This document shows positions 3,001 through 58,643 of a DNA stretch of 64,000 bases, piece after piece. A program made the position numbers and the translations under genes. The DNA comes from Panicum virgatum (Eukaryota > Streptophyta > Magnoliopsida > Poales > Poaceae), in NCBI RefSeq assembly GCF_016808335.1, contig NC_053153.1, positions 30,759,590-30,823,589 of the forward strand, read 5' to 3'. Position 1 is the stretch's first letter. Every line of letters begins with the position of its first letter. A model generated the notes under the pieces. It was not told where the DNA came from. It was given only the letters and a program-made list of their open reading frames with translations, and ran no database searches.

Positions 3001-3328
3001 GGGTTGTGTGCTGGGTTGGGTTTCTAGTTTTGGGTTGTGTTGCTTTGGGTCTTCTTTCCTTTTTCCTTCTATTTCTCTCTTTCTAATTCTAATTCAAACT
3101 CAAGCTAAAAGAATTCAAATAAATTTGAATTCAAACTCTAACCAAACAACAAAAGAAAAGATGCTCCAGCATGAATGCAACAACAAAGTTTAACCTATGA
3201 TAAAATTTTAATTACTTGAGGAACAAAAATTAGATTAAATGCAAGACTAATCATAATAAACCTTAGAAATTTAAATAAAGCCAATTAAATTTATTATAAA
3301 AAGCTGGAATTTAATTTAGGGTGTTACA
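1..3328 (-). repeat. 3' LTR of element A (partial)
   Basis: Matches the LTR at 5401-8093 nearly base for base, but keeps about 869 bp (622-1490) that the other LTR lacks. GC-rich in the middle (about 1700-3000), AT-rich at the TGTAACACCC end (3100-3328). Long open frames on both strands here, for example 1770-2531 and 2372-3193, come from high GC content and are not called genes. About 240 bp of the LTR lie outside the window. Confidence 0.85.
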
Positions 3329-3344
3329 AATCCTACCCCCTTAC
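3329..3344 (-). other. Polypurine tract of element A
   Basis: On the minus strand the sequence GTAAGGGGGTAGGATT abuts the 3' LTR start TGTAACACCC. A purine-rich plus-strand primer is expected here in an LTR retrotransposon. The same tract precedes the LTR at 61225. Confidence 0.8.
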
Positions 3345-3405
3345 AGGAATCTCGTCCCGAGATTCTGGGATGGCTAGCAAAGAGAAACAAGGATGGGATT
3401 AAGTT

Positions 3406-4569: not shown

Positions 4570-5384
4570 CTGAGCTGGGGCAAAGAGGAAACACAGATTG
4601 GTAAGGTCAAGGAAGAGAGAAAAACTCCATTATTTAAGGTTCTATCCTATTTAGACAACACTGCACAGGCATTACTACTGATAACTCCAGATAGGTGTTA
4701 CATAAATCCGGGAACAAGGAACTAGAGCATAACTCTTCTGTTTCGTCTGAGAGATTCTCAACTTCTCTTGTACTATCTGTAGGCTGGGGTGTCACATCCC
4801 TACCCCCTTACAGAAACCGACGTCCTCGTCGGCGACGTCCTTGTCAGTGAATCCCTGGATATCATATCCTCTTCGTACCATCCTTCTTCTCACAAACAAG
4901 ACCGGGGAAACCCAAGGCATGATAAGGTAGAGAAAATAGAGCAGATGGTTTTACCCCCAACGATCTAACTCATTTTTATTAATTAATTAACTTTAACTTA
5001 AAACTGATTTTCATTAAACAAATTTAACTACTAAACTAGGCAATCATTCAAAAATCCAAATCAAACATGTAGCATAATAACAAGCATGCAATTTCACAAC
5101 TTAGCCGAGTTTAACATCCGACTCGACTAACCACAACGCGTCGCAGAATGTGCTATCGTATTATTATAAAGGGGTCATCTAGCTTACACCTATGATGGTC
5201 AGACGACTTACTCCAGGCCAGAATCTACGGAAACTATTCTATAGAGAGAAATCAAGGCAAAACGAGTAAGAATCATGGAATTCAAGGGGTATATTAGCAA
5301 AATAGTTTCAGCAGACAAGGCTGAGAGAGAAAAGGACTTAAAACTCGACCAGTTCTATCTAGGCTTTCATCCTACAGTCGATAC
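4570..5384 (-). other. Leader of element A with an embedded PPT/LTR-start junction
   Basis: Non-coding on the minus strand between the PBS and gag. At 4797-4813 it contains CTGTAAGGGGGTAGGGA followed at 4796-4786 by TGTGACACCCC, which looks like the polypurine tract and first bases of a second LTR type. From this point to gag it is homologous to 60240-60463, where the homology also begins at TGTGACACCC. This suggests the gag-bearing segment was joined to another element's end. Confidence 0.6.
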
Positions 5385-5397
5385 GGCTTTGATACCA
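5385..5397 (-). other. Primer binding site of element A
   Basis: Minus strand TGGTATCAAAGCC lies three bases after the 5' LTR end. It matches the complement of the plant initiator methionine tRNA 3' end (TGGTATCAGAGC) with one mismatch. Confidence 0.75.
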
Positions 5398-5400
5398 CTC

Positions 5401-8712: not shown

Positions 8713-11466
8713 CTAACGACCCCTACCATTCCGACCTCTATTACGTTGTGCGTGTACGTGATCTTTAGGGTATCTATGACGTTCCGGTGGCCCCACGTTT
8801 CTGGCAGGACGGCATAACTGAGCCAGAGGTGTATGCAAGCTGGGATCATTGTCCTGGGCAGGCATAGCAAACAACCGTGTAAACTCGTCCAAGGAGGACG
8901 CGGCGTTGTCTCCAGACCACCCTACAGATCACAAAAAAAATATTTAAGTAACATTCAAAAGGTGAATGCAATTCCGTACAAATTATTGTACGTATCCTGT
9001 GTTGGAGGAGGTGGTGGTGGTGGATAGGAAGAAGCTCCTTCATATCCTCCTGGTGACGGCATAGGGTGATACGAAGACGGCCCCGCTCCAGTGAACTGTT
9101 GTGATCCTGAGTATAAATAATAACGTATGAGCCTTCGACCATAAAACATAAGCAAATAAAATTATGCACCACATATTTACCTAAAGTCCCTCCAGCATGT
9201 TGCATAGAGGTAAACTGGGTTCCATGAAATGGAGCCCCTTGCGAGGCACCTGGCCCTCCATAGGGCTGAGAACCGGGGTACCCGTACCCTGTGTGGAGTC
9301 GTATTTAAATAATGCATATAAACATACGGATCGGTAAATATCACACCATACCTTCTGCCTGTCGGTGGTATAAGGGAGGCTGCTGCCATGCAAAACCACA
9401 AGGAACCGACGTCGAAGCTTGCGACGATCCGTAGGAATCCTCGTACTCCGTCCGCGTACCAAAGGCCTGAAGCATACCTCGGGCTCTATCATGTTGAGTG
9501 GTCCAGGCCTCGAGTTGTGCCGGCACGCTCATCGTAGACCCGCCATGAATCCTCATTACATTCAGTGAGCAATCTAATTCAAGCAGCCTGCATGCCTCGA
9601 ACTGCAACGAAAAAAACTTAGTATACAAATATTAAAAGATCGAAAATGCCGTCAACATTTACTCACCGCCCCAGCTAATGCCTCATCCCTGTGTCGTGCA
9701 TAGCGATCCTGCGAAGTCGCAACATGCGGCTGTGGATGCATGTCAACATATGTCAAACGGCAACGAGTCTTCGGTTCCTACCAGGTCAGGTACGCCCGAA
9801 ACGAAGGCTCAGTGTGTGGACCGGTATCTTCAGCCAACTACTCGTCTGCATCATCCCACGCAGCCACCCATGGTTGTAATCTAGTGACCCACATTGTCAA
9901 GAAAGGATGCCCAGCCCTTGATAAACTGCACGTTAAATAGAAATTAGTTCCACATTATTAGTACATGGGTGCTCATACATTTTTGTTACCTATGATCGTG
10001 GCGCTGAACACGATCCAACGCTGAAGACACAGGGAAAGACTGGTGTCGACCAAACTGCCTCATGACTCTATCCGGGCAGTGGGCCTCAACTGCAACATCG
10101 TACACCAAAGCTGCAGTAGTCATCCATAGGACCTGGTCCTGTGTACACACCGAAGATATCCCAAGCGGTGCACGTGCGGCTATAGCCGAAGGACTGTATG
10201 GCTCCCACACAATGTCTTCTGGGGGTCAATCGATCAAATTCGGCAACAAACTCAGGATAAGACCGCCGGGTCTGTACATGTGCCCATGTTTTCTGCAAAA
10301 ATAAAAATTATGTGTCCATAAGAAAGGTATTGAGGGAACAATGTATGACCATAGTACACATAGAATATAAATTTTTATCGGGTCCCATACCTGTCGAGAG
10401 TACCAGAGAGTCCCCATGGTGGGTCTGTCGTCCTCCATGTCACCGTACAAATCCGGCGTGTACGGTGACTGGTCAATCATGGGACGACCGATCGCAATCC
10501 TCTCGTAAGACCAAAGCTGTAGCAGAATTGGGCACCCCGTTAGGACAGCATTCCTATCATTCTGCCGTGATACCTTGCAGAGTCCACGATATGTGCATGC
10601 AAGAGCCGCTGAACCCCAACTATATAAGGGTATGGCATCCTCATCTGCATCGGCGATCTCCTGTGCGTATGGCAGAAGCACCCTATCCACACAGTGCCCG
10701 TGTGAGTTGTTGAACAGGATGTACCCAAATAACCACAGCAGGTATGCCTCGAGTGATCTAGTCACGCTGTAGTCATCAGCATCGGCTGCCAACAAATCCG
10801 GCTGCAATGAAGTACGAACATTGAGAATAAGAAACACATGAGTTATTTCAAAGCCATCAAATACATCAACACATCGTTTTGTACAAAATTGTACCTGAAA
10901 CTGTAGGAGCCATGACTTGGAAGGGCCTTTCGACTGTGGGTGCTCATTGAAATCTTCAGGGTCAATCGTGGTGGCAACACCTGCAAAACGTTCCTCAAGA
11001 TCCTCCAGCCACGTAGAAGGTACCACACGGGGCCCGACAGCGTCTCCGGTGATAGGAAGACCAAGCAGCATCGCAACGTCCTGCAGAGTCGGTGCCATCT
11101 CCCCATAAGGGAGGTGGAACGTGTGTGTCTCAGGTCTCCATCTGTCAATGAGAGCTGAAAGTAGAGACCTGTCTAGCTTCACCAAAGCACTCTCAGCAAG
11201 ACGAGCCACTGTGAGAAGACCTGCCTCGCTCAGCCTGCATCATACAGTGCTCAACTGTTAATACATTGTATAACAAAATGTATAACGGATAAAAACAGAA
11301 AATATACGACATATCACCTGGGCACCCATCGTGGGTCTACAACAACCAACTCTGCAGGTGGACGTGGACGCAGCGCGTTTAGTTCTTGGTGCTGAACCTT
11401 CGCAAGGAAGGACCGGTGACCCGAGTCTATTGTTGGGTCCAGCAACGCAGGAGTAACCCCGGCCAT
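8713..11466 (-). pseudogene. Plant mobile domain (PMD) protein gene, nine coding exons, decayed
   Basis: Resembles the grass PMD / 'serine/threonine-protein phosphatase 7 long form' family, often found in or near transposons. Coding exons by GT-AG borders: 11466-11318, 11234-10895, 10801-10391, 10292-9990, 9925-9667, 9601-9352, 9288-9181, 9106 to about 9020, 8921-8713. PMD hallmarks: PRWVPR at the exon 1-2 join, RWRPETHTFHLPYGEMAPTL, LLGLPITGDAVGP, SWLLQFQ, WLFGYILF, RRSYPEFVAEFDRL, VMRQFGRHQSFP. The tail is Gly/Pro/Gln-rich and ends GRNGRGR before the stop. Breaks: a run of five G at 10221-10225 shifts the frame in exon 4, and in-frame TAG codons lie at 9840-9838 and 9780-9778 in exon 5. The exon 8-9 join is also not cleanly in phase. 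The nuclear silencing role is family knowledge only. Confidence 0.85.
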
Positions 11467-11469
11467 ACC

Positions 11470-12080
11470 TACCACGTAAGATCAAAACAATACAATACAA
11501 TCACACACATCTAAATATTTCTAATATTTCCTAAATAATTTATAAGATTTTCTAACCATTAATAATAATTTCTAATATTTTGTAACATTTTAGAAATTTT
11601 CTAATATTATCTTGCAATTTTTAAGATTAATTAATTAGATTGCTAATGTACTATATCAACGCTAATCACTACAATTAACTACACCTAAATGTACCACTAA
11701 TCAGTCCTAATAATAATTAAAATGATTGCTAATCTACTGTTTCAACAAAATAGTTTCTATAATTTTTTATAATTTTCTAACATTCTCTACAATTTTCTAA
11801 CATTCTCTACAATTCTCTATAATTTTCTACAATTTTCTAACATTTTCTACAATTTCTAATATTATCTTGCATTTTCTAATACTTCTCTAACAATTTTCTA
11901 GTATTTTCTAATACTAAATCTAAAACTTAATGTACTATATCAACGCTAATCACTATAAGTAAATGTACCTAAATGTACCACTAATCACTCCTAACAATAA
12001 TTGAACTGATTGGTAATCTACTGTTTCAAAAAAATAATTACAACATAATCTATTTATAAAATGTGGAAAATTTTAGTTAC
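11470..12080 (-). other. 5' UTR intron of the PMD gene, AT-rich simple repeats
   Basis: On the minus strand, donor GACTTTAG/GTAAC at 12081/12080 and an acceptor GTGGTAG just before ATG 11466 define an intron of about 0.6 kb. It is filled with a degenerate repeat of the type TTTTCTAACATTTTCTACAA (read on the plus strand, about 11510-11930) and contains no open frame. Confidence 0.55.
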
Positions 12081-12218
12081 CTAAAGTCGCCGGCTTGAAA
12101 ATCCGACAGGCCTTCTCCGCTTTGCCTCTCCCTCACCCCTCCTCTCCCTCCCTCCCTCTTTTTTCTTTTTTTCTGGATTTTTAGCAAGGCAAATGAGGGG
12201 GGAGGGGCAGCCAACACC

Positions 12219-12226
12219 CTTATATA
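12219..12226 (-). promoter_or_regulatory. TATA box of the PMD gene
   Basis: Minus strand TATATAAG, about 140 bp upstream of the proposed 5' UTR donor and downstream of a GC-rich motif cluster. It would place the transcription start near 12190. Confidence 0.6.
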
Positions 12227-12238
12227 AGACCGCCCTCA

Positions 12239-12360
12239 GCCGGGCGGCCGGTTCCAGGGACCTGTCCGTAATTTTGTTTCCTCTTTTTTTTACAGATTAG
12301 CCCCTGCCGCCCGACAGCCGGGCGGCCAGGTCCCGGCCGCCCGGCAGCGGGGCGGCCGGG
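12239..12360. promoter_or_regulatory. Cluster of GCCGGGCGGCC motifs upstream of the PMD TATA box
   Basis: Related GC-rich motifs occur at 12239-12251, 12317-12327, 12335-12345 (inverted) and 12347-12360, with nearly no other GC-rich DNA nearby. Their place just upstream of the TATA box suggests a promoter element. The binding factor is unknown. Confidence 0.4.
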
Positions 12361-13052
12361 GTATATTTCTATAAATTTTCAACTCGAAAATATATTTTTT
12401 GTAAAAAAAAAAGAAATAAAAAATAAAAAAATAAAAAAACCGCTCTGAAGCATCTCTTGTTTGTTGGCCTTCGGCCCATAGGCTAGCCTTCAGTCTAGCT
12501 ACTTTGCTCGCTCTTGTTTATAGTCTTCGGAGCGGGCCATTTTTGTGGGTCTCGGCCCACTAACCAAAGTTCGTTAATCAAAGCAAAATTATACCTTCGG
12601 CAACAACATTCAGTTGAGTAGCTTCACCCTAAGAATAAAATTTATTATGCCTTCAGTCAGACAGATATTTCGGTTAGTCGTTTCTTTTGCATAGCACTTT
12701 TGTTTAACCTGTTCACGCAAAATTTTCTCCTATCTGTGAAGGGTCCAGTAACTGTAGCAATGCAAAATGGCTTCGGTCTTTGCTAGATGGGGAAAAAGCC
12801 GCCATCGAAGCTAACCAGTCTAAACATCTCTGATTTTGCTATTGCTCAACATATATTTCTTTATTATACACACAAGCTGCACGGACTAACCATGCAGAGG
12901 AGAATTTTTGGCTTTGCCTTCGCTGATCATTGGCTTCGGCATTGCATACTCACCAGGCTGATCATTGGCACCGTTTTCTTTGTTGAATTCTTTCAAAGCA
13001 AGAGTTATCTTTAACTCCCTTCGATTTTCAACAAAAAGCAGTTGTCACTAAT
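12361..13052. other. Unassigned AT-rich stretch
   Basis: No gene found. Words such as CTTCGGC, GGCCCA and TTCGGAGC recur, as at 22987-23355, and suggest old transposon DNA. The last five bases (13048-13052, CTAAT) are the left target duplication of the solo LTR that follows. Confidence 0.4.
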
Positions 13053-13357
13053 TGTCGTTGCGGAGAATGGGCGACTACTCAATTACTCGATTGCTCGTTT
13101 GTCGTACGCTTGATCGGATATGGTCTAGCACGCAAAGATGTGGCGGAACCACCCAAAAGACTGGGTCCGGGTGCACTAATCTTCGTTGTTAAGCAACTCT
13201 GACCCAATTCGGCACGCACCGGTAGTTCCTCGAGTGATGCCTCGATAAAAACCATGCTATTCCAGGATGGCACAGACAACACTCACACGAAGGTGAGCTC
13301 AGAGATTACAACACATAACATCTCATACATCATCAGAGTTTGCAGCAGAAAAGGAAA

Positions 13358-13363
13358 TTTATT
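13358..13363 (-). terminator. Polyadenylation signal of the solo LTR
   Basis: Minus strand AATAAA in GGTTTGTAATAAATTTCC, about 140 bp after the LTR ORF stop. The same word at the same distance occurs in the full element (46534-46539). Confidence 0.55.
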
Positions 13364-13500
13364 ACAAACCATGTTCAGAGTAGCAAAGTACTATGGAAGT
13401 CCAAACTGCACCAATTATTCATGTCTCATTATTGCAGCGGAAGAAGTAAATGATGACTAACAAAACGTGTGACGCATCGATAAAGCCTGTACGAAATGCG

Positions 13501-13927
13501 TCACTCAGTGGGAGGGTGGTCAGCACCAGCTGAAGGGCCATCCCACTCAACAGACCAGCCCGGAGGCAAAGTACACTGCCAAGTCAGACCCGCAATCATA
13601 ACTTCGAAGTTAATACCTGAAAACAGTGCATCCGGATATCAAACATAGGAACCTAGGGATCATGCATCTAAGATTTTCGATCAATGCCTAGGAAACATAA
13701 ATGCGCAAATAAATTATTACAACATATACGAATAGTTAGATGAATATAATACGGAAAATAATGGATTATGCACCGGGGCTTGCCTTCTTGGGCACTGTCA
13801 AACTGAGAGTCCTCTGGGGCTTGGCCCAGGTCTTGGTTCAAGTTAGCACAGTTAAGATTAACTTCCGATGCAGCAAGAGGGTCCGATGGAATCAACTCGT
13901 AATAACCATCGGCGAGATTAACCATTT
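13501..13927 (-). CDS. LTR-borne spliced ORF, exons 2 and 3 (solo LTR copy)
   Basis: Exon 2 is 13927-13784, exon 3 13616-13501. The frame opens with ATG 13925 in good context (GAAATGG) right after an ATAG acceptor and runs 85 codons to TGA at 13503-13501. The intron begins GCAAGC after CAAGAAG and ends TTTTCAG, a GC-AG intron in phase 1. The protein has VNLADG near the N terminus, EVNLNC, QDLGQAPE and LPPGWSVEWDGPS near the C terminus. By hand alignment with the Tekay LTR copy about 62 of 85 residues agree and there are no indels in either exon. I recognise no domain. Function unknown. Confidence 0.55.
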
Positions 13928-15444
13928 CTATATGCAATGCAAGATTTCATGGTTATAACATGATAAATGATTTCTTTCCTTCACGATAAAGTTGTAGTCC
14001 AATAAAAAGTTAACTTAGTGATAATCTTTGTGATTTCATTTCCTGGGCAGTCATTTATGGAGTAGTACTTATAGTTAATTTACTTCATGAATGAGTGTGT
14101 GGGGTGTGTTCCATTTTCTAGGATTAAAATATAAGCATGTGTTCACAATTTCATAACAGAAAATATACTGATGATCTGGTGATGAAATTTTTATGTAGAT
14201 CAGATTAGATGGACTAGAATCTACTGTAAAAATTTCAGCATATAACAACAAGGCATTTAAACATGAAAAATCATGCAAACAGATTAACATAGGGACTTCA
14301 CAAATTTGCGCAGAATGATAGGCATGGTTTCTGGTGCTAAAAAATTTACAGCAACATTTTGATATTATCTACTCAGTACTGCAATTTTTCATGATTTATA
14401 AAATTAACAAAACTAACAAGCTAGCAACAAAAATAAATTCCACAGAGAGTTAAGCAAAGGTTATGGATCTCAAAATTTTTCCAGAACCTAGAAGTGGTCA
14501 AAACATGATCGAGAAAAAGTATGAAGCATTATTTCTACCAGATCAATTACTTATGCATTTAACTTTATATGAACTTGCATATTCATTCGAGATTCAAGAT
14601 TATCAGTGCTGCATGTGAAATGTTTACCACAGGAAGTATTCATTCTAACTAAGAACATGTCCAAATATCATGACCAGATATGGACTATCTCCTCCAGAAC
14701 AAAAATAACAACTCTAGACATGATATACCAAGAATGATTTATAACTGTAGTAATACTTAGTAAATGGTGTTCAAACTTTGCAGGCATGATTGCACCACAA
14801 AATAAAAGATCAAGAATTAAATCTAGATTTTTCTAAGCATAGTAATTATATACCATGAATTAAGTTCATCAAATAAGCATTAAACATAATATATAGCAAA
14901 CATGCTCTAAAATTAATCAAACTTATAGATCTACAAGACTTCGGTAACATGTTCATCCAGGAATAATTTCAGAGCTAGAGAATGTTCAAGTTTTCCAGCA
15001 TTAATATATCAAGTTCACTAGTAGATCTAAGAATCTTTGTCATTTAGGCAAGTTAACAGATTCAAACAGATCTCATCTTTTTACCAAAAGCTTATAACTC
15101 TACCAGGATTAACATATCCAAAAATCAAGTCCATCCAGTGAACAAAACTACCAGAACATTTATGAGGTGTTTATTCTATTCTCTTTCATAGATTAAAATG
15201 TGGATAGATTCTGAAGATTTTCATATAACAAAACTTGTAGATTTCATTGCAAGGTTTCCATATCATTTGAGTTTGCATTTTTATGATTTTTTGTGATTTG
15301 TTATGCATTTTTAAAGTTCACTACAGTACTCAGAAAAACTTGCATTTGGCCCCTTAAACGAAAAAGAAAAATTACAACCGGGTCCTTCGCCGGCCTTCTC
15401 CACAGCCGCACCTTGCCGGTGGTGTTCTGCTAGGCAGGGCTTAC

Positions 15445-15630
15445 CGGTGCTGCGACTGGGAGGCACGTGCGGTAGAGGAGTTCGAGAGCTACCTTCCAGT
15501 ACCGGTGTTCGAGGCTGGGGTGACTGGAATCGAGTTCGCCGCCGTGAATGGCGGCGGTGGCGTTCGGGTCGCCAGCGTTGTGGGCGAAGGAAGGCTCGGG
15601 GTGGTCGAACGTCGAGCGCACAAGCACCAT
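15445..15630 (-). CDS. LTR-borne ORF, conserved exon 1 segment (solo LTR copy)
   Basis: 62 codons from the first ATG after the TATA box to a strong splice donor CACCG/GTAAGC. The segment LVR..F.HPEPSFA..AG.PN aligns with 43455-43640 in the Tekay element, many differences being in third codon positions, and the LPVAAP just before the donor is shared. The donor leaves phase 0, whereas exon 2 needs phase 1, so either an exon is missing from my model or exon 1 is a separate upstream ORF. No known domain recognised. Confidence 0.4.
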
Positions 15631-15933
15631 GAGGGCTTGAGGAAGCTGTTGGGGGTAGATCTCGTGCTCGATTGTCACCGGAATCGGTCGGTCCACGGCG
15701 AGCCGGGGGACTCACCGGCGGCGGCGCGATTGGGCAGCGGCGCGTGGGTGGCTTTGGGTGGATTTTTGGGAGTGCGTGAGCTTTACTGGAGCTAGGAGAG
15801 GCTGCTGTGAGGTTGGGTGGGGGAATGTGGGTCGGGAGTGGCCTGTCCGTGCGAGCTCGAGCTCGCCGGCGATGGCGGACGGCAGAGAAAGGGGGAAAAG
15901 AAGGGGGTCGCGCGACTGCAGGGGCTCTGGTCC

Positions 15934-15941
15934 TATTTATA
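15934..15941 (-). promoter_or_regulatory. TATA box of the solo Tekay-type LTR
   Basis: Minus strand TATAAATA in the context GCCTATAAATAGGACC, the best core promoter match in this LTR. Transcription would start near 15905. The first ATG downstream is 15630-15628, which opens the conserved exon 1 frame. Confidence 0.65.
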
Positions 15942-17096
15942 GGCTAGAGGGCTTGGAGGCGAAGCAAATGAGCTCTGGGGGAGGTCGGACTGGGCTAGAG
16001 GCGCTCGGCGGTGAGGTGGCGGCCGGAGGAGCGGCGCTGCGCATGGCGGGGTGGCGTGTCAAGCGCCCAAGTGTCCAGGGACACGTGTGTGCGGGAGGAG
16101 AGGCCAAGGGGCAGTCCAGGTGTCCCTGGCGGGCTCTCCTGGGTCCAGTTGGCCGTGGACGCGCCATGGACGAGGTCCACCGGCGGCGTACGGGCGGGCG
16201 GCGGCGAAACAGAGAAGGAGATGGAGGTAGGGACCGTTCTGTAAACTAAATTATCTCTACCTTCCTGGGCTCAAATGAAAAAAGTGTTGAATACTAAACT
16301 TGTGTAACTTTTCAAGATCTAGAACTTTTGTTTTAGGCAAAATTTTATTTGAAATCCACATTTTGAACTAATTCGTAATTCCAAACTTGCAATAAAGGGC
16401 TTTGATTTTTATTTGATTTTTAATTAGATTTGGCTGAAACTTGAATTAAGCACATGTCATTTAAGGTACTAGCTGCATCCCAAACTTATTTTTGTGCATA
16501 TTTTTAAACAGGATTTGAGTATGTTCTAAACATCTTTGCTCTCACATTCAATGTTCCAAATGTGTAGTTTGAATTGTATTTGACCTTTTCTTTCTGAATT
16601 AAATTTCCAAAACCCCTTCTATGATTTATTTGAGTTAAATGGATTGGCTTTTAGTGCACAGACACCGGAGGTGTCACAAAAGACTCGAGGATTTAGACTG
16701 GTTCAGGCCAAAAATGCCCTACGTCCAGTTTGGGGGGTGGTGTTCTTGCTCTATTCCTCTCGAGCCCGGGTGCTCAAAGTTCAGAGGGGAGCTTACAAGC
16801 CTTTCAAGAAGTGTGCTATCTGGGTGTCGAATCTCTAGGAGTCCAACCCTTTCCTATGTGAGGGGTTTTTCCTTTTATATTCCAAGGTGGGGCCCCGTAT
16901 TTACATATATCTATCACGATGTCTTGGTTCTGCCTGGGAGTTCTTTATCTTCATCGGTCGTCGGGGCCCACTCGGTCGGTCGGGAGTGGAGAGACTTGAG
17001 CCTGGCTGGTTTTCTTGGGCGACGGGTTGTCTAGGTGCTGTCCCGTCCTTGGTCAGTCGGGATGACCTCGCCGCTCGGGAGGTCACTTGGGGGTCG

Positions 17097-42360: not shown

Positions 42361-43144
42361 GTGATTGTGACACCTCAGGTGTCAGTACTTTTAAATACAA
42401 TCAATGTACCTTAGTTAAAGTTAAAATAAAAATTTGAGAAATTGATTCAAAGAGAAAGGACCAAATAGAATACCAATCATATAAAAGAAATTAAAGGAAA
42501 AAGAGAAAGGAGTGAAAAGCTACTCAAAATTTAATTCAAAAAAAAATGTGCACAAATTTTTTGTTGGCTCATGAGAGGTGTTTCAATTGACATGTGCTCA
42601 ATTGAACTTCAGCCAAAATCAAGTCAAAAACTGAATAAAACTAAAGTCCTTTTGTGCAAATATGCAAATGTACCAATAGTTCAAAATGTGAGTTTCAAAT
42701 GAAAATTTGCATAACACAAAAGTTGTAGATCTTGAAAAGTTATGCAAAAGTGGTATTCAACACTTTTCCATTTGAGCCCTCCAATTAGAAGATAATTTTA
42801 GTTTACCGAGAGGTCCCTGGAACTTCAGAAATCACAAATATGCCCTTATCTCCATCTCTCTCTTTCCCGGCCTGCTCTGTTCGCGCCGCCCGCCGTACGC
42901 CGCCGGTGGACTTCGTCCACCGCGCGCCCGCGGCCAAATGGACCCGGGGAAACCTCTCCACGCCACCTGGCCCGCCCCTTGGCGCCCTCCCACGCCCACA
43001 CGCGTCCCAGGCCGCTCCCCGAGCCGCCACGACACCCCCAGCCATGTGCCGCGCCGCTGCCGCTCCGCCCGCTCGCCGTCGACTCGCCCAGGCCAAATCG
43101 ACCGCCCCCAGTCACTCCATTCCTCACCCAGGAGCTCTTTGGCC

Positions 43145-43150
43145 TATAAA
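43145..43150 (+). promoter_or_regulatory. TATA box of the Tekay LTR
   Basis: TATAAA in GGCCTATAAAGACC, the only good core promoter match in the LTR; the start site would be near 43175. The same box is at 55029-55034 in the 3' LTR. The first ATG after it (43214) opens only an 11-codon upstream ORF. Confidence 0.7.
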
Positions 43151-43454
43151 GACCCCCAGAACCACCACAGTCGTGCCCCTTCTTCCCCTTCTTCCTCCTC
43201 CCGCCGCTCCGCCATGGCCGCCGAGATCCAGCTCTCGCGGACCGGCTAGCCCAGCCCCACATTGCCCCCTCCGACCACCGCAGCAGCTTCGCCACCTCCC
43301 AGTTAAGCTCCACGCGCGCGGAATCGAATCCAAACCCCCTCCCGAAGCCGTTCCCCTTTTGCGCCGCCGCCGGCGAGCTCAGGCTCACCGCGGACCGGCC
43401 AGCTCCGGGGAAGACCGAGCCCGACAGCTACCCCAGAAGCATCCACGAGCTCAC

Positions 43455-43640
43455 GCGGTGCTCGTGCGTGCCCTGTTCCACTACCCCGAGCCCTCCTTCG
43501 CCTCCAGCGCCGGCGAACCGAACAACCGACCCGCCATCAACGCCGACGAGCTTGAACCTGTGCTCCAAACGCTCGAACGTCGACCAGGGTAGGTGTTCCT
43601 CGATCCTTTCTCCCCCACGCGCCTCCCCGTGGCAGCCCCG
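43455..43640 (+). other. Conserved exon 1 segment of the LTR-borne ORF (Tekay copy)
   Basis: Aligns with 15630-15445 in the solo LTR without indels near its end: LVRALFHYPEPSFA and AGEPN up to LPVAAP and the shared donor CCCCG/GTAAGC. In this copy no ATG opens the frame and a TAG at 43590-43592 interrupts it, so it may be untranslated or decayed here. The same holds in the 3' LTR (TAG 55474-55476). Confidence 0.4.
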
Positions 43641-45169
43641 GTAAGCCCTGCACCGCAGAACACCACCGGCAAGATGCCACGGCGGAGAAGGCCGGCGAAG
43701 GACCCGGTTGTAATTTCTTTTTTTCGTTCAAGGGTGTCTCTGCAAGTTTTACAGTGTATACCAGTGAACTTCTAAAATGCGAAACAAATCACAAAAAAAT
43801 CAGAAAAATGCAAACTCAACTGATCTGGAATCCTTGTAAAAAAATCTACAAATTTTGTAACATTCACATTTGCAGAAACTCAACCGAATTTAATCTAGGG
43901 AAAAGAATAAGAAAACCACCTTATGCATGTTCATGAAGTTCTACCCATCAAATGACCTTGTTTTTGGATATGTTATCACTAATGGAATGCTAAGATCACA
44001 GTAAAAAGATGACACCAACCCAAAACAGTTATCATGTTAGAACAATCAAGATTCTCTAATCTGTTGTTAGTTTTTTTCGATTTAATTCAGGAAAATATGC
44101 ACATGACCTTGCTCTGAAAATTTTACTACAGACTTGTGCCACTGAATCCCTGCAAATCTCTAAATTTCAAATTTATTAGAGTTCGTGTGCTATATACCAT
44201 GATTTATGCTGGTTTAATCAACTTAATTCCTCATATATAGTTCTTATGCTCAGAAAAATCTATATTTATTTCTGGAGTCTCTTTTTAGCTCTATGTTCCT
44301 GTCTAAAAATTTTGAGCTGCAGTTACGGAGTTTTGCTTTGTTGAATAATCATGCTTAGCATCTTAGGGCTAGATTTACTATTTTTGTTCTGAGTAATCTA
44401 CAATGTTTCTGATCTTTATTTTTGGGCATGATCTTGTTTAGAGTATGTTCTACCCGTGATAAAAAGTTCAGATGCAATACTGGTCAAATGCATCTTGAGA
44501 AATTTATGCAAACTCATGTTAAGTTAACTGAATAACTAATTTATCATAGTGAGTTAAATCTTGAAAAATTTTGTGGAGTATGTTTAACTCAGGACTAGTA
44601 TCTGGTAAAAATTTGAGAACCAAATCCTTAGTAAAACTTTCTGTAGAATTAATCTTTGTTAATGGCTTGCTGTTTTTAATCTTTTTATCACCTCCGCTAT
44701 ATAAGTGTATAAAATCTGGAAAAATTTCAGTACTGAGTTTATGCTTTGAAGTTGCTTGCATAAAATTTGTAGCACCATAACCCATGTTGAACATTCTGTA
44801 CAAAAAGATGAAGCAACTAGAGTAATCCATTTGCATGAATAGTTATAGTTTTTGCTCTATGGTAGATGCTGAAATTTATACCATGAATGTTCAAGTTTGA
44901 ATCTGAGTTACTTTAGTGTTTCATCACTAGCTCTTTAGTAGTTGTGTTGTTAAGGAATAATGAAAGCATGCTATGTGTTGAAATTAAAAATGAAAACCCA
45001 AAACCCCACTCATTCATGAATAACCGTAGTTATGTTTGCTACTCTATAAACGATTGCCCATGCAATGAAATGTGAAATCATCACTAAATTAACTTTCGTG
45101 GACTACAACTTTATCGTGAAGGAAAGAAATTATATCCCTGGATAACTCAAAATCTTGCATTGCATATAG

Positions 45170-46400
45170 AAACGGTTAACCTCGCGGACGGAGACTACGA
45201 ACTGGTGCCCGCGGACTCTCGTGCGGAGCAGGAGGTTAATCTGAACTGTACTAACTTGTCTCAAGACCTGGGCCAAGCCCCAGAAGCCTTTCTGCCTGAC
45301 AGTGCCCAAGAAGGCAAGCCCCGGAGCATAATCCCACTATTTTTCCGAATTACCATTCTGCTATCTATTTATTAATGTATGGTAATAGTTGGTTTTCTGC
45401 ATTTAAGTTCTCTAGGCGTTGATCGAAAACCCTAGACGCATGATCCATAGGAACCTATGTTTGATACCGGATCTTTTTATCGACTAGTTGCCATGCTAAA
45501 TAGGCACGGTAGAAGTCGAGTGGTTCCCTGCCTCTCGCGAGCAAATAGGAATTGTACTGACTTTAATTCCTGTTGAAATGTAAGGACAACAGGCGGGGTT
45601 GTGTAGTTGTGATACCCCGCTGGTGTAGTCAAAAATGGCTAAGGTCGCGGTGTGTGGCTCATTTCGTTAAGCGTTTGAAAGTACTAGCCACATACCGAGA
45701 AATATGGTAATCGGTAAGCTTAAGTACCTGATTGGACCGGCGAGTGGAACGATCTCGCACCCTCCTGGTAGAAGTAGGGTTTATTTTATGTCGCGACGTA
45801 CGGGTGCAGAGTGGTCGGACTCTGTAGTCGGGGAGGGTGTTCCGGATCCACGGACTGGAAAGAAAGGGGAAAAGTAGCGTGGGCGGGAGCGAAGTCGATC
45901 CCCATGCGTGTGGTCTAGGTTCCCCTGGCCAGGTTGAAATTCGATTCGGAATCGTCCGCCTCTCACGGCATGAGATTGCTTAATGATTTCGGTCACATAG
46001 AGTAACAAGTGGAATACGATGATGGAAATACTGCTGGTTGATTAAATGGTTGCTCTACCATGTTTGAGTAGAGTTAGTTGCAAATTTAGAATGGTTAATT
46101 CCACTAGAATCTGGCTAAGTAAAACATGAAAGTAAGGATCAACACTTAGCGGCATTTTTGGCAAACAAACCCTACCAACCAAAAAGCCTTGCATGTCTAG
46201 TTATCGGACTATGTTATATCCGGAGACGGGTCAGTCTTGCTGAGTATTAGTATACTCAGCCTTGCTTGTGGCACTGTTTTTCAGGTACTAACTTTGAAGA
46301 TCTGTTTGCGAGTCTTACTTGGCCTTGCACTCTGCCTCCGGGTTGGTCTGTTGAGTGGGATGGCCCTTCAACTGGTGCTAATCACCCTCCCGCTGAGTGA
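45170..46400 (+). CDS. LTR-borne spliced ORF, exons 2 and 3 (5' LTR copy)
   Basis: Exon 2 is 45170-45313 and exon 3 46285-46400, with TGA at 46398-46400. The intron is GC-AG (CAAGAAG/GCAAGC ... TTTTTCAG) in phase 1, as in the solo LTR. The coding length from the position equivalent to the solo ATG is the same, 85 codons, with VNLADG, EVNLNC, QDLGQAPE and LPPGWSVEWDGPS conserved. The start codon position reads ACG here, so translation would need an upstream or non-AUG start. By hand, about 16 codons differ silently and 23 change the residue. Function unknown. Confidence 0.55.
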
Positions 46401-46533
46401 CGCATTCGTACGGGCTTTACCGATGCGTCACGTTATCTCGCTAGTTATCTTACTGCTTCCGCTGAACTTTGAGACTTGAATAATTTGAGGAGTTGGAACT
46501 CCGTAGTACTTCGCTAGTCTGAACATGGTTTGT

Positions 46534-46539
46534 AATAAA
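46534..46539 (+). terminator. Polyadenylation signal of the Tekay LTR
   Basis: AATAAA in GGTTTGTAATAAATTTTC, 134 bases after the exon 3 stop, conserved in the solo LTR and 3' LTR. Confidence 0.55.
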
Positions 46540-46760
46540 TTTTCTTTCCGCTGCAATCACTCTGAGATGTATGAAATGGTTTGTGTTGTAATCTCTGGAC
46601 TCACCTTCGTGTGAGTGTTGTCTGCTGATCCTGGAATAGCGTGGCTTTTATCGAGGCTTCACTCGAGGAACTACCGGTTGGTGCCAAATTGGGTCAGAGT
46701 TGCTTAGCAACGAAGATCAGTGCACCCGGGCCCAGTAGTTTTGGGTGGTTCCGCCACAGC

Positions 46761-46772: not shown

Positions 46773-48159
46773 TCGCAGACAGCCTACCAGAGATGGCAAC
46801 CTCGGTTTTCAAAACAACAATTTAAAACTTGACTTCAAAGCTACTAAAGTTTTTGAAAGAGTTTAGGATCTCCAAGGACAAGTCTAGGACGTAAAGCCCT
46901 AGGGAATCTTATGGGTATAATCAGGTGGCTTATTTTGTATGGCTAACTTCCAGCACCTTACTTTTCAGTATTTAAATCCTGTAAGTTAAATTCTGCAACT
47001 ACATCATCGCCACGAAGGTATGCTTACTCAGTCAGCTGAGGGAGTCTGACCTTCCCGTCGGTGATGCGAGCCGAACGCTGGAGCTCAAGCAGTGGCCTAC
47101 TTGAGCTGCTGCCCATATACCAACTTCGGTTGAGTATATGGGGAGTAATGGTTCGAAATTGGAATTCAATTCCCCGTCAAAGACGGTACTCAGTCAATAC
47201 GTTGTTTCGATAACGTATGCTTAACGTTGTCCATACGGCGGTAATGGTATGGATGCCGATTCTATAGTGATCGGTAATGTATGGGGACGCTTTCGTGAGT
47301 GCTGGCACGAAAGGTTCATTTTATATACTGTCAATCTTCTGCAGGTACGCTAACTCGAAATCGAATTATAGACTATCTAGCTATATCGAGTAGCTATATA
47401 GTGAGAGACGTAATATGTATGCCACCAAAGTCATTGCGTAAGACCAAGATTACTTGGAAATTTTTCCTTGGTGAGGATGTATAGGTTCTGCATTCATTCT
47501 CAAAAAGATTAGCAAATAAATCTCGGGGGAAATCGCAAGCAAATCAGTTAAAACACTATCCTAGGGAGTATCCAGAAAGTCTGCAACCTGGTTTCCACGA
47601 ATTTTAACCTTCTGTTAAGTTACTCAAATTGACTTGGGGTAGTAAGACTAAATGGTGTTTCCTAAGTTATCCAGCTGCTGTAAAAATTTGAAAATTTTTG
47701 AAGCCTTCTAGCATGGTATTTGTATTTTTGGATCAACCCTGTGTAAAACTGTTAACTCTGAACAGTCTATACAACTGAAATTTTTCGACCTTTATAAGTT
47801 GTTCAAACTAAAAATCGTTCAACATGAAAGTTGTAGACAACTAAGTGATGAGCTTACTATAAAAATTTGAAATTTTTTTTTTACATCTGGGTTGAGAGTT
47901 ATAGTCAAAATACACCCTCTCGGGACACTCAGTTTTCCTGGTTGACGTCACTCCGAATACCTGAGCATATCACCCCCATGGAGTCCGAATTGATCTTAGT
48001 GGTGACTAGATGAATTGTTCCTTAATATCAGAGGGATCTTGTGTAAATTTTTGAGAATTTTTGAAGCAAGTTCTCTACAGTTTTGGCCATTTCTTTCACT
48101 GTTCCAGAGTTAGTAGTCTTGTTACCATCAGCTGATCCATCGGTCTTTTGTTGGGACAG
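46773..48159 (+). other. Leader of the Tekay element
   Basis: About 1.4 kb without an ORF of note. It ends with TTTTGTTGGGACAG right before the ATG of the extra ORF, a possible splice acceptor. Confidence 0.5.
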
Positions 48160-49060
48160 ATGGAAGAGCTGCTGGTCGTTGACGCGCAGGGGCACGTGCA
48201 CTCCGCTTGCCTGCACTGGGATGGGTTTCCCCGCCATCTTTGGGAGCTTTTGAGTGCAGCCGGTTACCTCCAGCCACCGGTTTACGATGGCCACGAGTTT
48301 GTGGAGGACGGAGTTCGTCGCTGCAGTGTGACGATGGTGATCCCGCAGCACCCGCTCAACGGGTGGGAGCCGATCGTGACTCAGATGGTCGGTCACTACC
48401 TGCTGGACACCTGGGAGCTTACCGCCATGAGGGCGATGACCACCTTTTGCTCTTTGCGCCCTCTGGAGGTGGTTCTGACCGCGTTCGGGTTGTTCCCTGC
48501 ACCTGACCCGGCAGACCCGCTTTGGCTCGACCGGATGGCACACGTGGACGTGGTCGCTACCCTTGACCCGGTCGGGGCCCTTCGGACGACAGCGAGGTGC
48601 TTGGACGGTCCCTACAGACTTCACACTTACCAGGGTTACGCCGTCGCTCAGTTGGTGGACCACGCTCAGGCCTTGCACCTGGCGGTCCAGCTGAGAGATG
48701 GGCAGCTTCAGGAGGCTAGTACCGAGCTCGAGAGCAGGGCTACTCTTATCGCCCAGCTCCACGGCCAGGTTCACGAGCTTCAGGACACTGTGTCGGATTG
48801 TGACTGCTACGATCAACTTCCTGGAGGACCAGTTTCACGACCTGCAGCTTGAGATGGACGAGGCTCAGGGGCAGCTCCACGCGATACAGCACGCGCAGGA
48901 TGCCCTTCACGCACCTCCCGATGAGATGCAGGTGGACGAGGAGGACGAGCCCCAGGAGATAGAGTGCGTTTCAGAGATGGACTCCGAGGACCAGGCGCCG
49001 CAGCCCGCACCGGTTGAGGTTCACACTCCCGTGGCGAGTGAGGCATCGGTCAACATGTAG
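48160..49060 (+). CDS. Additional ORF between PBS and gag of the Tekay element
   Basis: ATG 48160 directly follows an AG. The frame runs to about 48804, then coding character continues one base on in the next frame to TAG-terminated 49060, so the copy has a one-base shift near 48805 or uses frameshifting. The first part has LHWDGFPRHLWELL, GVRRCSVTMVIPQHP and WEPIV motifs; the second part is a heptad-like coiled coil rich in Q, E, L and ends in an acidic tail (EEDEPQE). I recognise this only as a kind of uncharacterised protein common in grass retroelements; function unknown. A capsid-associated or RNA-binding role would be a guess. Confidence 0.6.
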
Positions 49061-54249: not shown

Positions 54250-57200
54250 TGTGACACCTCAGGTGTCAGTACTTTTAAATACAATCAATGTACCTTAGTT
54301 AAAGTTAAAATAAAAATTTGAGAAATTGATTCAAAGAGAAAGGACCAAATAGAATACCAATCATACAAAAGAAATTATAGGAAAAAGAGAAAGGAGTGAA
54401 AAGCTACTCAAAATTTAATTCAAAAAAAAATGTGCACAAAATTTTTGTTGGCTCATGAGAGGTGTTTCAATTGACATGTGCTCAATTGAACTTCAGCCAA
54501 AATCAAGTCAAAAACTGAATAAAACTAAAGTCCTTTTGTGCAAATATGCAAATGTACCAATAGTTCAAAATGTGAGTTTCAAATGAAAATTTGCATAACA
54601 CAAAAGTTGTAGATCTTGAAAAGTTATGCAAAAGTGGTATTCAACACTTTTCCATTTGAGCCCTCCAATTAGAAGATAATTTTAGTTTACCGAGAGGTCC
54701 CTGGAATTTCAGAAATCACAAATATGCCCTTATCTCCATCTCTCTCTTTCCCGGCCTGCTCTGTTCGCGCCGCCCGCCGTACGCCGCCGGTGGACTTCGT
54801 CCACCGCGCGCCCGCTGCCAAATGGACCCGGGGAAACCTCTCCACGTCACCTGGCCCGCCCCTTGGCGCCCTCCCACACCCACACGCGTCCCAGGCCGCT
54901 CCCCGAGCCGCCACGACACCCCCAGCCATGCGCCGCGCCGCTGCCGCTCCGCCCGCTCGCCGTCGACTCGCCCAGGCCAAATCGACCGCCCCCAGTCACT
55001 CCATTCCTCACCCAGGAGCTCTTTGGCCTATAAAGACCCCCAGAACCCCCACAGTCGCGCCCCTTCTTCCCCTTCTTCCTCCTCCCGCCGCTCCGCCATG
55101 GCCGCCGAGATCCAGCTCTCGCGGACCGGCTAGCCCAGCCCCACATTGCCCCCTCCGACCACCGCAGCAGCTTCGCCACCTCCCAGTTAAGCTCCACGCG
55201 CGCGGAATCGAATCCAAACCCCCTCCCGAAGCCGTTCCCCTTTTGCGCCGCCGCCGGCGAGCTCAGTCTCACCGCGGACCGGCCAGCTCCGGGGAAGACC
55301 GAGCCCGACAGCTACCCCAGAAGCATCCACGAGCTCACGCGGTGCTCGTGCGTGCCCTGTTCCACTACCCCGAGCCCTCCTTCGCCTCCAGCGCCGGCGA
55401 ACCGAACAACCGACCCGCCATCAACGCCGACGAGCTTGAACCTGTGCTCCAAACGCTCGAACGTCGACCAGGGTAGGTGTTCCTCGATCCTTTCTCCCCC
55501 ACGCGCCTCCCCGTGGCAGCCCTGGTAAGCCCTGCACCGCAGAACACCACCGGCAAGATGCCACGGCGGAGAAGGCCGGCGAAGGACCCGGTTGTAATTT
55601 CTTTTTTTCGTTCAAGGGTGTCTCTGCAAGTTTTACAGTGTATACCAGTGAACTTCTAAAATGCGAAACAAATCACAGAAAAATCAGAAAAATGCAAACT
55701 CAACTGATCTGGAATTCTTGTAACAAAATCTACAAATTTTGTAACATTCACATTTGCAGAAACTCAACCGAATTTAATCTAGGGAAAAGAATAAGAAAAC
55801 CACCTTATGCATGTTCATGAAGTTCTACCCATCAAATGACCTTGATTTTTGGATATGTTATCACTAATGGAATGCTAAGATCACTGTAAAAAGATGACAC
55901 CAACCCAAAACAGTTATCATGTTAGAACAATCAATATTCTCTAATCTGTTGTTAGTTTTTTTCGATTTAATTCAGGAAAATATACACATGACCTTGATCT
56001 GAAAATTTTACTACAGACTTGTGCCACTGAATCCCTGCAAATCTCTAAATTTCAAATTTATTAGAGTTCGTGTGCTATATACCATGATTTATGCTGGTTT
56101 AATCAACTTAATTCCTCATATATAGTTCTTATGCTCAGAAAAATCTATATTTATTTCTGGAGTCTCTTTCTAGCTCTATGTTCCTGTCTAAAAATTTTGA
56201 GCTGCAGTTACGGAGTTTTGCTTTGTTGAATAATCATGCTTATCATCTTAGGGCTAGATTTACTATTTTTGTTCTGAGTAATCTACAATGTTTCTGATCT
56301 TTATTTTTGGGCATGATCTTGTTTAGAGTATTTTCTACCCGTGATAAAAAGTTCAGATGCAATACTGGTCAAATGCATCTTGAGAAATTTATGCAAACTC
56401 ATGTTAAGTTAACTGAATAACTAATTTATCATAGTGAGTTAAATCTTGAAAAATTTTGTGGAGTATGCTTAACTCAGGACTAGTCTCTGGTAAAAATTTG
56501 AGAACCAAATCCTTAGTAAAACTTTATGTAGAATTAATCTTTGTTAATGGCTTGCTGTTTTTAATCTTTTTATCACCTCTTCTATATAAGTGTATAAAAT
56601 CTGGAAAAATTTCAGTACTGAGTTTATGCTTTGAAGTTGCTTGCATAAAATTTGTAGCACCAGAACCCATGTTGAACATTCTGTACAAAAAGATGAAGCA
56701 ACTAGAGTAATCCATTTGCATGAATAGTTATAGTTTTTGCTCTATGGTAGATGCTGAAATTTATACCATGAATGTTCAAGTTTGAATCTGAGTTACTTTA
56801 GTGTTTCATCACTAGCTCTTTAGTAGTTGTGTTGTTAAGGAATAATGAAAGCATGCTATGTGTTGAAATTAAAAATGAAAACCCAAAACCCCACTCATTC
56901 ATGAATAACCGTAGTTATGTTTGCTACTCTATAAACGATTGCCCATGCAATGAAATGTGAAATCATCACTAAATTAACTTTCGTGGACTACAACTTTATC
57001 GTGAAGGAAAGAAATTATATCCCTGGATAACTCAAAATCTTGCATTGCATATAGAAACGGTTAACCTCGCGGACGGAGACTACGAACTGGTGCCCGCGGA
57101 CTCTCGTGCGGAGCAGGAGGTTAATCTGAACTGTACTAACTTGTCTCAAGACCTGGGCCAAGCCCCAGAAGCCTTTCTGCCTGACAGTGCCCAAGAAGGC

Positions 57201-58643
57201 AAGCCCCGGAGCATAATCCCACTATTTTTCCGAATTACCATTCTGCTATCTATTTATTAATGTATGGTAATAGTTGGTTTTCTGCATTTAAGTTCTCTAG
57301 GCGTTGATCGAAAACCCTAGACGCATGATCCATAGGAACCTATGTTTGATACCGGATCTTTTTATCGACTAGTTGCCATGCTAAATAGGCACGGTAGAAG
57401 TCGAGTGGTTCCCTGCCTCTCGCGAGCAAATAGGAATTGTACTGACTTTAATTCCTGTTGAAATGTAAGGACAACAGGCGGGGTTGTGTAGTTGTGATAC
57501 CCCGCTGGTGTAGTCAAAAATGGCTAAGGTCGCGGTGTGTGGCTCATTTCGTTAAGCGTTTGAAAGTACTAGCCACATACCGAGAAATATGGTAATCGGT
57601 AAGCTTAAGTACCTGATTGGACCGGCGAGTGGAACGATCTCGCACCCTCCTGGTAGAAGTAGGGTTTATTTTATGTCGCGACGTACGGGTGCAGAGTGGT
57701 CGGACTCTGTAGTCGGGGAGGGTGTTCCGGATCCACGGACTGGAAAGAAAGGGGAAAAGTAGCGTGGGCGGGAGCGAAGTCGATCCCCATGCGTGTGGTC
57801 TAGGTTCCCCTGGCCAGGTTGAAATTCGATTCGGAATCGTCCGCCTCTCACGGCATGAGATTGCTTAATGATTTCGGTCACATAGAGTAACAAGTGGAAT
57901 ACGATGATGGAAATACTGCTGGTTGATTAAATGGTTGCTCTACCATGTTTGAGTAGAGTTAGTTGCAAATTTAGAATGGTTAATTCCACTAGAATCTGGC
58001 TAAGTAAAACATGAAAGTAAGGATCAACACTTAGCGGCATTTTTGGCAAACAAACCCTACCAACCAAAAAGCCTTGCATGTCTAGTTATCGGACTATGTT
58101 ATAACCGGAGACGGGTCAGTCTTGCTGAGTATTAGTATACTCAGCCTTGCTTGTGGCACTGTTTTTCAGGTACTAACTTTGAAGATCTGTTTGCGAGTCT
58201 TACTTGGCCTTGCACTCTGCCTCCGGATTGGTCTGTTGAGTGGGATGGCCCTTCAGCTGGTGCTAATCACCCTCCCGCTGAGTGACGCATTCGTACGGGC
58301 TTTACCGATGCGTCACGTTATCTCGCTAGTTATCTTACTGCTTCCGCTGAACTTTGAGACTTGAATAATTTGAGGAGTTGGAACTCCGTAGTACTTCGCT
58401 AGTCTGAACATGGTTTGTAATAAATTTTCTTTCCGCTGCAATCACTCTGAGATGTATGAAATGGTTTGTGTTGTAATCTCTGGGCTCACCTTCGTGTGAG
58501 TGTTGTCTGCTGATCCTGGAATAGCGTGGCTTTTATCGAGGCTTCACTCGAGGAACTACCGGTGAGTGCTAAATTGGGTCAGAGTTGCTTAGCAATGAAG
58601 ATCAGTGCACCCGGGCCCAGTAGTTTTGGGTGGTTCCGCCACA
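54250..58643 (+). repeat. 3' LTR of the Tekay element
   Basis: 4,394 bp, aligned end to end with the 5' LTR. The TATA box is at 55029-55034. Confidence 0.95.
57055..58285 (+). CDS. LTR-borne spliced ORF, exons 2 and 3 (3' LTR copy)
   Basis: Exon 2 57055-57198, exon 3 58170-58285, same GC-AG intron and stop. Differs from the 5' LTR copy at two codons in exon 3 (GGT to GAT in LPPGW, ACT to GCT in DGPS(T/A)G); the second agrees with the solo LTR. Confidence 0.55.

What the first reader, a model, noticed from the sequence alone, without database searches (positions are those of the whole stretch)
13501..13927. Tekay-type LTRs carry a conserved, spliced small gene
Seen: in two clearly diverged LTRs (13927-13501 minus; 45170-46400 plus, repeated at 57055-58285) exon 2 and exon 3 have identical lengths (142 nt from the start position, and 116 nt), the same phase-1 junction, the same TGA and no indels, while the intron between them differs by about 780 bp. 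By hand about 62 of 85 residues agree, and many of the base differences are silent third-position changes. That is the pattern of a protein kept by selection. LTRs are normally considered non-coding, so an LTR-encoded spliced protein would be unusual. Alternative: a host gene fragment captured once before the families split.
Basis: partly seen in the sequence, partly recalled or inferred. Interest (0 to 1): 0.88.

Follow-up and report, generated by a model that had tools for sequence, protein, structure and literature searches.

The report
Small spliced gene inside retrotransposon LTRs
The long terminal repeats of a common family of grass jumping genes, normally taken to be non-coding, carry a small split coding sequence whose protein has been kept by selection in three diverged lineages and is likely made from spliced RNA; its role as a helper of the element is only predicted.

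Summary
Both LTR types in the window, from Retrosat2-like (Tekay-type) elements, carry two coding blocks separated by a GC-AG intron (167 nt in copy A by deletion, about 970 nt elsewhere). Over 51 indel-free copies dN/dS is 0.26 between families (shifted frames 0.86-1.00); a codon model gives omega 0.34, 63 log units better than 1. A-like variants in one copy look neutral (N:S 87:32), those in four or more copies purified (23:30). Against a third LTR lineage, exon 3 differs at 79% of synonymous but 13% of replacement sites. Four JGI database proteins of unknown source join both exons at the predicted junction; genome searches with two of them and a junction pattern listed no joined copy, so they are likely spliced RNA. 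Corrections: the ATG of copy A is not the family's start; exon 2 likely begins at a conserved CATATAG acceptor. The start codon is not settled; the best candidate is an 8-codon upstream exon, which is not clearly conserved and not seen joined. The product is short, strongly acidic, predicted disordered, without a Pfam match. Its function is inferred.

The parts
13139..16678 (-). LTR copy A, a solo LTR (TG...CA; flanking 5-bp duplication TCTTT at 16679-16683 and 13134-13138)
   Evidence: ends and flanks printed; alignment to LTR B
13928..13942 (-). conserved 15-nt acceptor stretch TTGCATTGCATATAG before exon 2 (copy A)
   Evidence: 15 of 15 identical to B while intron 1 is 0.67-0.70 identical
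13784..13927 (-). exon 2 of copy A (likely opens with 2 nt of a split codon; the ATG at 13925-13923 is not shared by the other indel-free copies)
13617..13783 (-). intron 2 of copy A, GC-AG, 167 nt, shortened by deletion
13501..13616 (-). exon 3 of copy A, ends in TGA
15936..15941 (-). TATA box of copy A (predicted)
   Evidence: sequence only
42366..46758 (+). 5' LTR of element B (duplication GTGAT at 42361-42365 and after the 3' LTR)
43145..43150 (+). TATA box of LTR B (predicted)
   Evidence: sequence only
43641..43646 (+). candidate donor of a leader exon (CCCCG|GTAAGC); another is 43589 (CCAGG|GTAGGT). Neither is proven
44580..44604 (+). candidate first coding exon: ATG plus 7 codons plus 1 nt, donor GT at 44605, in phase with exon 2. 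Unproven
   Evidence: ATG, open frame and GT together in 40 of 56 copies with 900 nt upstream, but retention only near the 75th percentile of intron positions
45155..45169 (+). conserved acceptor of intron 1 (predicted)
45170..45313 (+). exon 2, 5' LTR of element B
45314..46284 (+). intron 2, GC-AG, 971 nt, non-coding but strongly conserved
46285..46400 (+). exon 3, 5' LTR of element B, ends in TGA
54250..58643 (+). 3' LTR of element B
57055..57198 (+). exon 2, 3' LTR of element B
58170..58285 (+). exon 3, 3' LTR of element B
48136..48852 (+). open frame of 238 aa between LTR and gag, at the place of ORF0 in Retrosat2/RIRE3/RIRE8
   Evidence: position compared with PMC3485330
49670..54238 (+). 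single open frame, 1522 aa, gag-pol of element B
   Evidence: Pfam matches (Retrotrans_gag, protease, zinc knuckle, RVT_1) in the part scanned, 49706-52000

Best explanation
The long LTRs of these Tekay-type retrotransposons contain a coding sequence split by a GC-AG intron, whose short, strongly acidic product has been kept by purifying selection in three diverged LTR lineages and is likely made from spliced RNA as an accessory protein of the element. Shown: the two exons, the conserved splice signals, selection in one reading frame only, near-neutral decay of variants private to one copy in the A-like family, and four database proteins with the exons joined exactly at the predicted junction. 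Inferred: transcription would start at the TATA box in the LTR, an upstream exon carrying the start codon would be joined at the conserved CATATAG acceptor, and intron 2 would be removed to give the protein message. RNA that keeps intron 2, which is itself conserved and non-coding, would serve as genome and as gag-pol message, so splicing would separate the two uses of one transcript. Predicted: the product is disordered and would act through short linear motifs in exon 3 (an acidic-aromatic FED[LM][FI]ASLTW stretch followed by PPGWSVEW) by binding a host protein to favour expression of the element. Of two candidate targets I put transcriptional co-activation first and Argonaute binding through the GW motif second.
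For: Frame-specific constraint: dN/dS 0.26 (A-like against B), 0.33 within A-like, 0.22 within B; shifted frames 0.84-1.37. Codon model omega 0.344, lnL -2949.4 against -3012.5 at omega 1. A-like variants seen in 1 copy N:S 87:32, in at least 4 copies 23:30, Fisher P = 0.0003; in shifted frames the at-least-4 class is 32:11 and 37:9; neutral expectation 2.4-3.0. Third lineage C: first 26 codons of exon 3, two A/B copies against four C copies, pS 0.79, pN 0.13. Splice sites: GC-AG in 42 and GT-AG in 2 of 51; AG at acceptor 1 in 48 of 51; the acceptor-1 stretch is 15 of 15 identical in 4 of 5 A-like/B comparisons (12 of 15 in the fifth) and 13 of 15 in both C comparisons, while intron 1 is 0.66-0.83 and 0.53-0.60. 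Joined proteins: P0001, P0142, P0178, P0199 among 314 listed hits (lists of 106 of 106, 120 of 488 and 120 of 720 hits). Junction pattern of the A/B type with up to 2 mismatches: 0 hits in the genome. Genome searches with P0178 (150 listed rows, all ending at residue 81-89 of 122) and P0001 (no listed row beyond residue 67 of 89) showed no joined copy. 14-17 acidic against 0-1 basic residues in three copies.
Against: Start codon unsettled: B copies have no in-frame ATG in exon 2 or 3. The best upstream candidate (ATG plus 7 codons, 44580-44604) has ATG, open frame and GT together in 40 of 56 copies, but its ATG and GT are retained in A-like copies only at about the 75th percentile of intron positions, its residues vary, and no counterpart with a donor was recognised in family C. 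Three of the four joined proteins still carry residues encoded just upstream of the CATATAG acceptor, so intron 1 was not removed there in those sequences; the fourth starts further in. None of the 314 listed proteins shows an exon 1-exon 2 junction. That the joined proteins come from RNA is inferred: their contigs could not be fetched, only P0001 and P0178 were searched in the genome, and neither is identical to a listed copy (best 96% and 95%), so they may come from other plants, where an intron-less genomic copy is not excluded. Genome searches score only the best of 10,598-14,905 loose candidates. 10 of 51 indel-free copies have an internal stop. B singleton variants are 14 N to 14 S, below the neutral expectation. 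The function rests on motif resemblance recalled from memory; the fold model (mean pLDDT 46) rests on 4 sequences.
Confidence: 0.6

Rival explanations
1. The two blocks are relics of a host gene captured once by an ancestral LTR; they are not coding now, and similarity is common descent only.
For: A capture as origin is possible; no relative with a name beyond 'hypothetical protein' and no Pfam domain was found.
Against: A relic would drift in all frames alike. Selection is confined to one frame and to variants shared by several copies, and protein is kept where synonymous sites are near saturation.
Confidence: 0.05
2. The conservation is at RNA or DNA level (splicing, packaging, dimerisation) and the open frame is incidental.
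For: Intron 2 and the region after the stop are also well conserved (A-like against B: intron 2 JC distance 0.138, last 980 nt of intron 1 0.455), and a hairpin follows the stop in A, B and two of four C copies.
Against: An RNA constraint does not spare synonymous sites in one frame only; within intron 2 no window has a ratio below 0.49 on either strand, while windows over exon 3 give 0.28-0.29 in the same scan.
Confidence: 0.05
3. The frame is a translated leader peptide: its translation or stop in the 5' leader of the full-length RNA regulates ORF0 or gag-pol translation, and the protein itself has little function.
For: In the full-length RNA the exons lie upstream of ORF0 and gag-pol. No start codon of its own is settled.
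Against: Amino-acid conservation over about 85 residues, strongest in the C-terminal exon, is more than a regulatory upstream frame usually needs.
Confidence: 0.15
4. The two exons are the tail of a longer protein: an exon in the internal region (ORF0 or gag) is spliced to exon 2 in the 3' LTR, as some retroviral accessory genes use a 3' LTR.
For: Would supply a start codon; acceptor 1 is strongly conserved.
Against: No such junction is seen in 314 listed proteins; P0178 and P0142 show LTR sequence upstream of exon 2.
Confidence: 0.15

Closest known systems
Retrosat2 / RIRE3 / RIRE8 / FRetro3 (grass elements, PMC3485330; Retrosat-2 filed under Tekay in PMC6317226)
   Same: LTRs of about 3 kb or more, TATA box and long R region in the LTR, an extra frame (ORF0) between LTR and gag-pol, abundance in grasses; the paper reports the U5 (3') part of the LTR as the conserved one within Oryza.
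   Different: The parts of PMC3485330 that I read (sections 3, 8, 10, 14 and found passages; [quoted passage not shown] 'intron' does not occur and 'splic' only in a reference. ORF0 is a different, internal frame.
MMTV sag (superantigen encoded in the LTR of a retrovirus; recalled)
   Same: A protein encoded wholly inside an LTR, made from spliced RNA.
   Different: Unrelated family; as far as I recall sag is not split by an intron inside the LTR; here the gene is in plant Ty3/gypsy elements.
Ogre introns of legumes (described in a passage of PMC6317226)
   Same: Splicing of a subset of transcripts of a plant Ty3/gypsy element governs which protein is made.
Small acidic activation domains and GW/WG Argonaute-hook proteins (recalled)
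   Same: Acid-rich disordered chain with an aromatic/leucine stretch; a GW motif in acidic context.
   Different: Resemblance of short motifs only; no Pfam match, binding untested.

Membership tests
Tekay (Del) chromovirus LTR retrotransposon, Retrosat2-like | paired LTRs with TG...CA ends and 5-bp target duplication | tested here: met
   42366-46758 and 54250-58643, GTGAT on both sides
Tekay (Del) chromovirus LTR retrotransposon, Retrosat2-like | gag, protease and RT in one frame | tested here: met
   1522 aa; Retrotrans_gag, RVP_2, RVT_1
Tekay (Del) chromovirus LTR retrotransposon, Retrosat2-like | C-terminal chromodomain and place in the RT tree of the Tekay clade | not tested
Tekay (Del) chromovirus LTR retrotransposon, Retrosat2-like | ORF0 upstream of gag-pol | tested here: inconclusive
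   a 238-aa frame lies at the right place but was not compared with a Retrosat2 ORF0 sequence
protein-coding gene | purifying selection in one frame | tested here: met
protein-coding gene | complete frame with start codon | tested here: inconclusive
   no ATG in exons 2-3 of B; an 8-codon upstream candidate exists in 40 of 56 copies but is not conserved above intron background
spliceosomal intron (intron 2) | conserved donor and acceptor, and joined product | tested here: met
   sites; joined proteins: (their RNA origin is inferred)
spliceosomal intron (intron 1) | conserved sites and joined product | tested here: inconclusive
   acceptor conserved; no joined product seen
GW/WG Argonaute-hook protein | binding to Argonaute through Trp | not testable with these tools
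   motif only

The most novel reading that the evidence does not exclude
Grass Tekay retrotransposons carry a retrovirus-like accessory gene wholly inside their LTR: a spliced, acidic, disordered regulator that activates the LTR or blunts small-RNA silencing, with a conserved intron that sorts transcripts into messages and genomes. Because it sits in the LTR, every solo LTR keeps a free-standing copy with its own promoter, so grass genomes would hold thousands of scattered viral-type regulator genes.
Probability: 0.25. Interest if true: 0.9.

Novelty: new variant of a known kind. Interest (0 to 1): 0.72.

Why it matters
[quoted passage not shown] A coding, spliced LTR would be a direct answer for this group, would make sense of the uneven conservation inside these LTRs, and predicts that repeat masking hides a repeated, expressed protein family. 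It also makes the question testable: exon-junction reads and a short peptide are easy to look for.

Tried and rejected
Rejected: the ATG of copy A as a family-wide start (18 of the 314 listed database proteins do begin MVN at this place, which fits repeated CpG decay of ACG). Not rejected but unproven: an 8-codon upstream exon ending TCTG|GTAAAA (44580-44604). On re-checking, ATG, open frame and GT occur together in 14 of 27 A-like, 20 of 21 B and 6 of 8 other copies; the frame is open in 24 of 27 A-like copies. Its ATG and GT are retained at about the 75th percentile of intron positions, residues vary, and in family C copy L071 the stretch that looks corresponding lacks a GT (by eye). Rejected: a long ATG frame reaching the donor at 43589 in 9 of 21 B copies; it begins upstream of the TATA box and its frame shows ratios 0.61-2.90. 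A second gene in intron 2: no constrained frame on either strand. One frame in the B leader had ratios 0.26-0.31 over three windows but rests on few changes, and no A-like frame there falls below 0.57. Coding upstream of exon 2: frames differ between copies. Junction pattern, exact, in viral contigs and genome contigs: 0 hits. Literature: searches listed no title or abstract start on a coding or intron-bearing plant LTR; PMC3485330 was read in sections 3, 8, 10, 14 plus passages, PMC6317226 in passages only, all others as listings. The original paper on RIRE3/RIRE8 was not seen. Fold: low confidence, so no fold search was run.

Full report
What was checked. The window lies in an unnamed plant genome of 1.13 Gb; the size and 18 large contigs suggest switchgrass, from recall. 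The exon coordinates, lengths, phase, stop and the count of 62 of 85 residues are right. The window holds one young element B (LTRs 42366-46758 and 54250-58643, 99.2% identical, duplication GTGAT) and one solo LTR A (13139-16678, minus, duplication TCTTT). So the window itself offers two independent copies; more were fetched from the genome.

Sampling. 70 loci were fetched for families A and B: 30 by protein score (biased to intact copies), 20 by non-coding 3' DNA of A and 20 by intron-1 DNA of B. With three window pieces, 65 of 73 records had both exons; 60 were non-redundant and 51 of those free of indels: 30 A-like and 21 B, the B set including both LTRs of the window element. The 9 copies with indels and the 8 records lacking an exon were dropped from codon counts. 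Of the 51, 10 have an internal stop and L004 lacks the final TGA. In the samples picked by non-coding DNA, 17 of 20 B copies are intact, 2 have a stop and 1 lacks exon 3. Of 20 A-like copies 5 are scored intact, 3 have a stop, 6 an indel, 3 lack exon 2, and 3 are duplicates of copies that one search lists as intact, so 8 of 20; two of these 8 (L036, L045) have foreign sequence in place of the first residues of exon 2. Four loci of a third family C came later.

Selection. NG86 dN/dS in the true frame is 0.26 between A-like and B, 0.33 within A-like, 0.22 within B; in the two shifted frames 0.84-1.37. On a tree from the exons, intron 2 and up to 1 kb upstream (built), a codon model on 50 distinct coding sequences gives omega 0.344 and beats omega 1 by 63 log units. 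Related copies are not independent in the pairwise means; the tree model handles this. Among A-like copies, variants in one copy have N:S 87:32 plus 7 stops, near the neutral 2.4-3.0; variants in 2-3 copies 37:22 plus 4 stops; variants in at least four copies 23:30 and no stop; in shifted frames the last class is 32:11 and 37:9. This is what an element gene gives: near neutral after insertion, purified in the lineages that multiply. The two LTRs of element B differ at two exon sites, both replacement. B singletons (14:14 plus 2 stops) are lower than neutral and are not explained.

Depth. Family C was reached through P0178. Its LTRs have the same plan: exon 2, an intron of about 0.9-1.0 kb, exon 3. 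Over the first 26 codons of exon 3, C and A/B differ at 79% of synonymous but 13% of replacement sites; within C the ratios pN/pS are 0.41 (exon 2) and 0.29 (exon 3). One of the four C copies has a stop in exon 3 and one lacks the CATATAG site.

Splicing. Intron 2 has GC-AG ends in 42 and GT-AG in 2 of 51 copies. Four JGI proteins join exons 2 and 3 at that junction, out of 314 listed; two of the three lists were capped at 120 of 488 and 120 of 720 hits. The genome search with P0178 listed 150 rows, none passing residue 89 of 122, and with P0001 no listed row passes residue 67 of 89; the A/B-type junction pattern had no hit with up to two mismatches. P0142 and P0199 were not searched in the genome. 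Neither P0001 nor P0178 is identical to a listed genomic copy (best 96% and 95%). The source of these proteins could not be checked, so spliced RNA is the likely but not proven reading.

Where it starts. This points to an upstream exon. The best candidate is an ATG plus seven codons at 44580-44604, in phase, with donor GT: ATG, open frame and GT occur together in 40 of 56 copies. I had first set it aside; the recount shows its frame open in 24 of 27 A-like copies. But it is retained no better than many intron positions (about the 75th percentile), its residues vary between families, and it was not recognised in C. Three joined proteins also retain the codons before the acceptor. The gene model is therefore incomplete at its 5' end.

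Intron 2. It is more conserved than intron 1 (JC 0.138 against 0.455 for its last 980 nt) and has no constrained frame. A role in the full-length RNA, such as packaging, is an inference.

The protein. About 86 residues from the acceptor on, 14-17 acidic and 0-1 basic in three copies, no Pfam match in P0001, P0178 or P0199 at E up to 0.1 (P0142 not scanned), and a fold model with mean pLDDT 46, which fits disorder but rests on four sequences. The most conserved part is exon 3. The suggested motifs are recalled resemblances.

Known context. Element B resembles Retrosat2-type Tekay elements: long LTRs, a frame at the ORF0 place and a single gag-pol frame (PMC3485330, PMC6317226). The chromodomain and the RT tree were not tested.

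Noticed in passing
45314-46284: Intron 2 is non-coding yet far more conserved than intron 1 between LTR families (JC 0.138 against 0.455), and about 0.65-0.75 identical to family C; candidate packaging or other signal of the full-length RNA.
   Followed up: partly
46398-46430; 13470-13503; reverse complement of L071, about 3948-3975: A hairpin directly follows the stop codon in A and B (TGACGCAT...ATGCGTCA); a different stem at the same place is the best fold in C copies L071 and L073 but not in L072 and L074.
   Followed up: partly
48136-48852: Open frame of 238 aa at the place of ORF0, overlapped at its end by a shifted 121-aa frame (48695-49060); two weak Pfam matches below cut-off only.
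   Followed up: no
23361-24686 and 32535-33860: Direct repeat of about 1.3 kb, 95% identical, 9.2 kb apart: probably the LTRs of another element.
   Followed up: no
1-8093 and 61585-63288: Several related repeat blocks (84-99% identical) near both ends of the window, some inverted.
   Followed up: no
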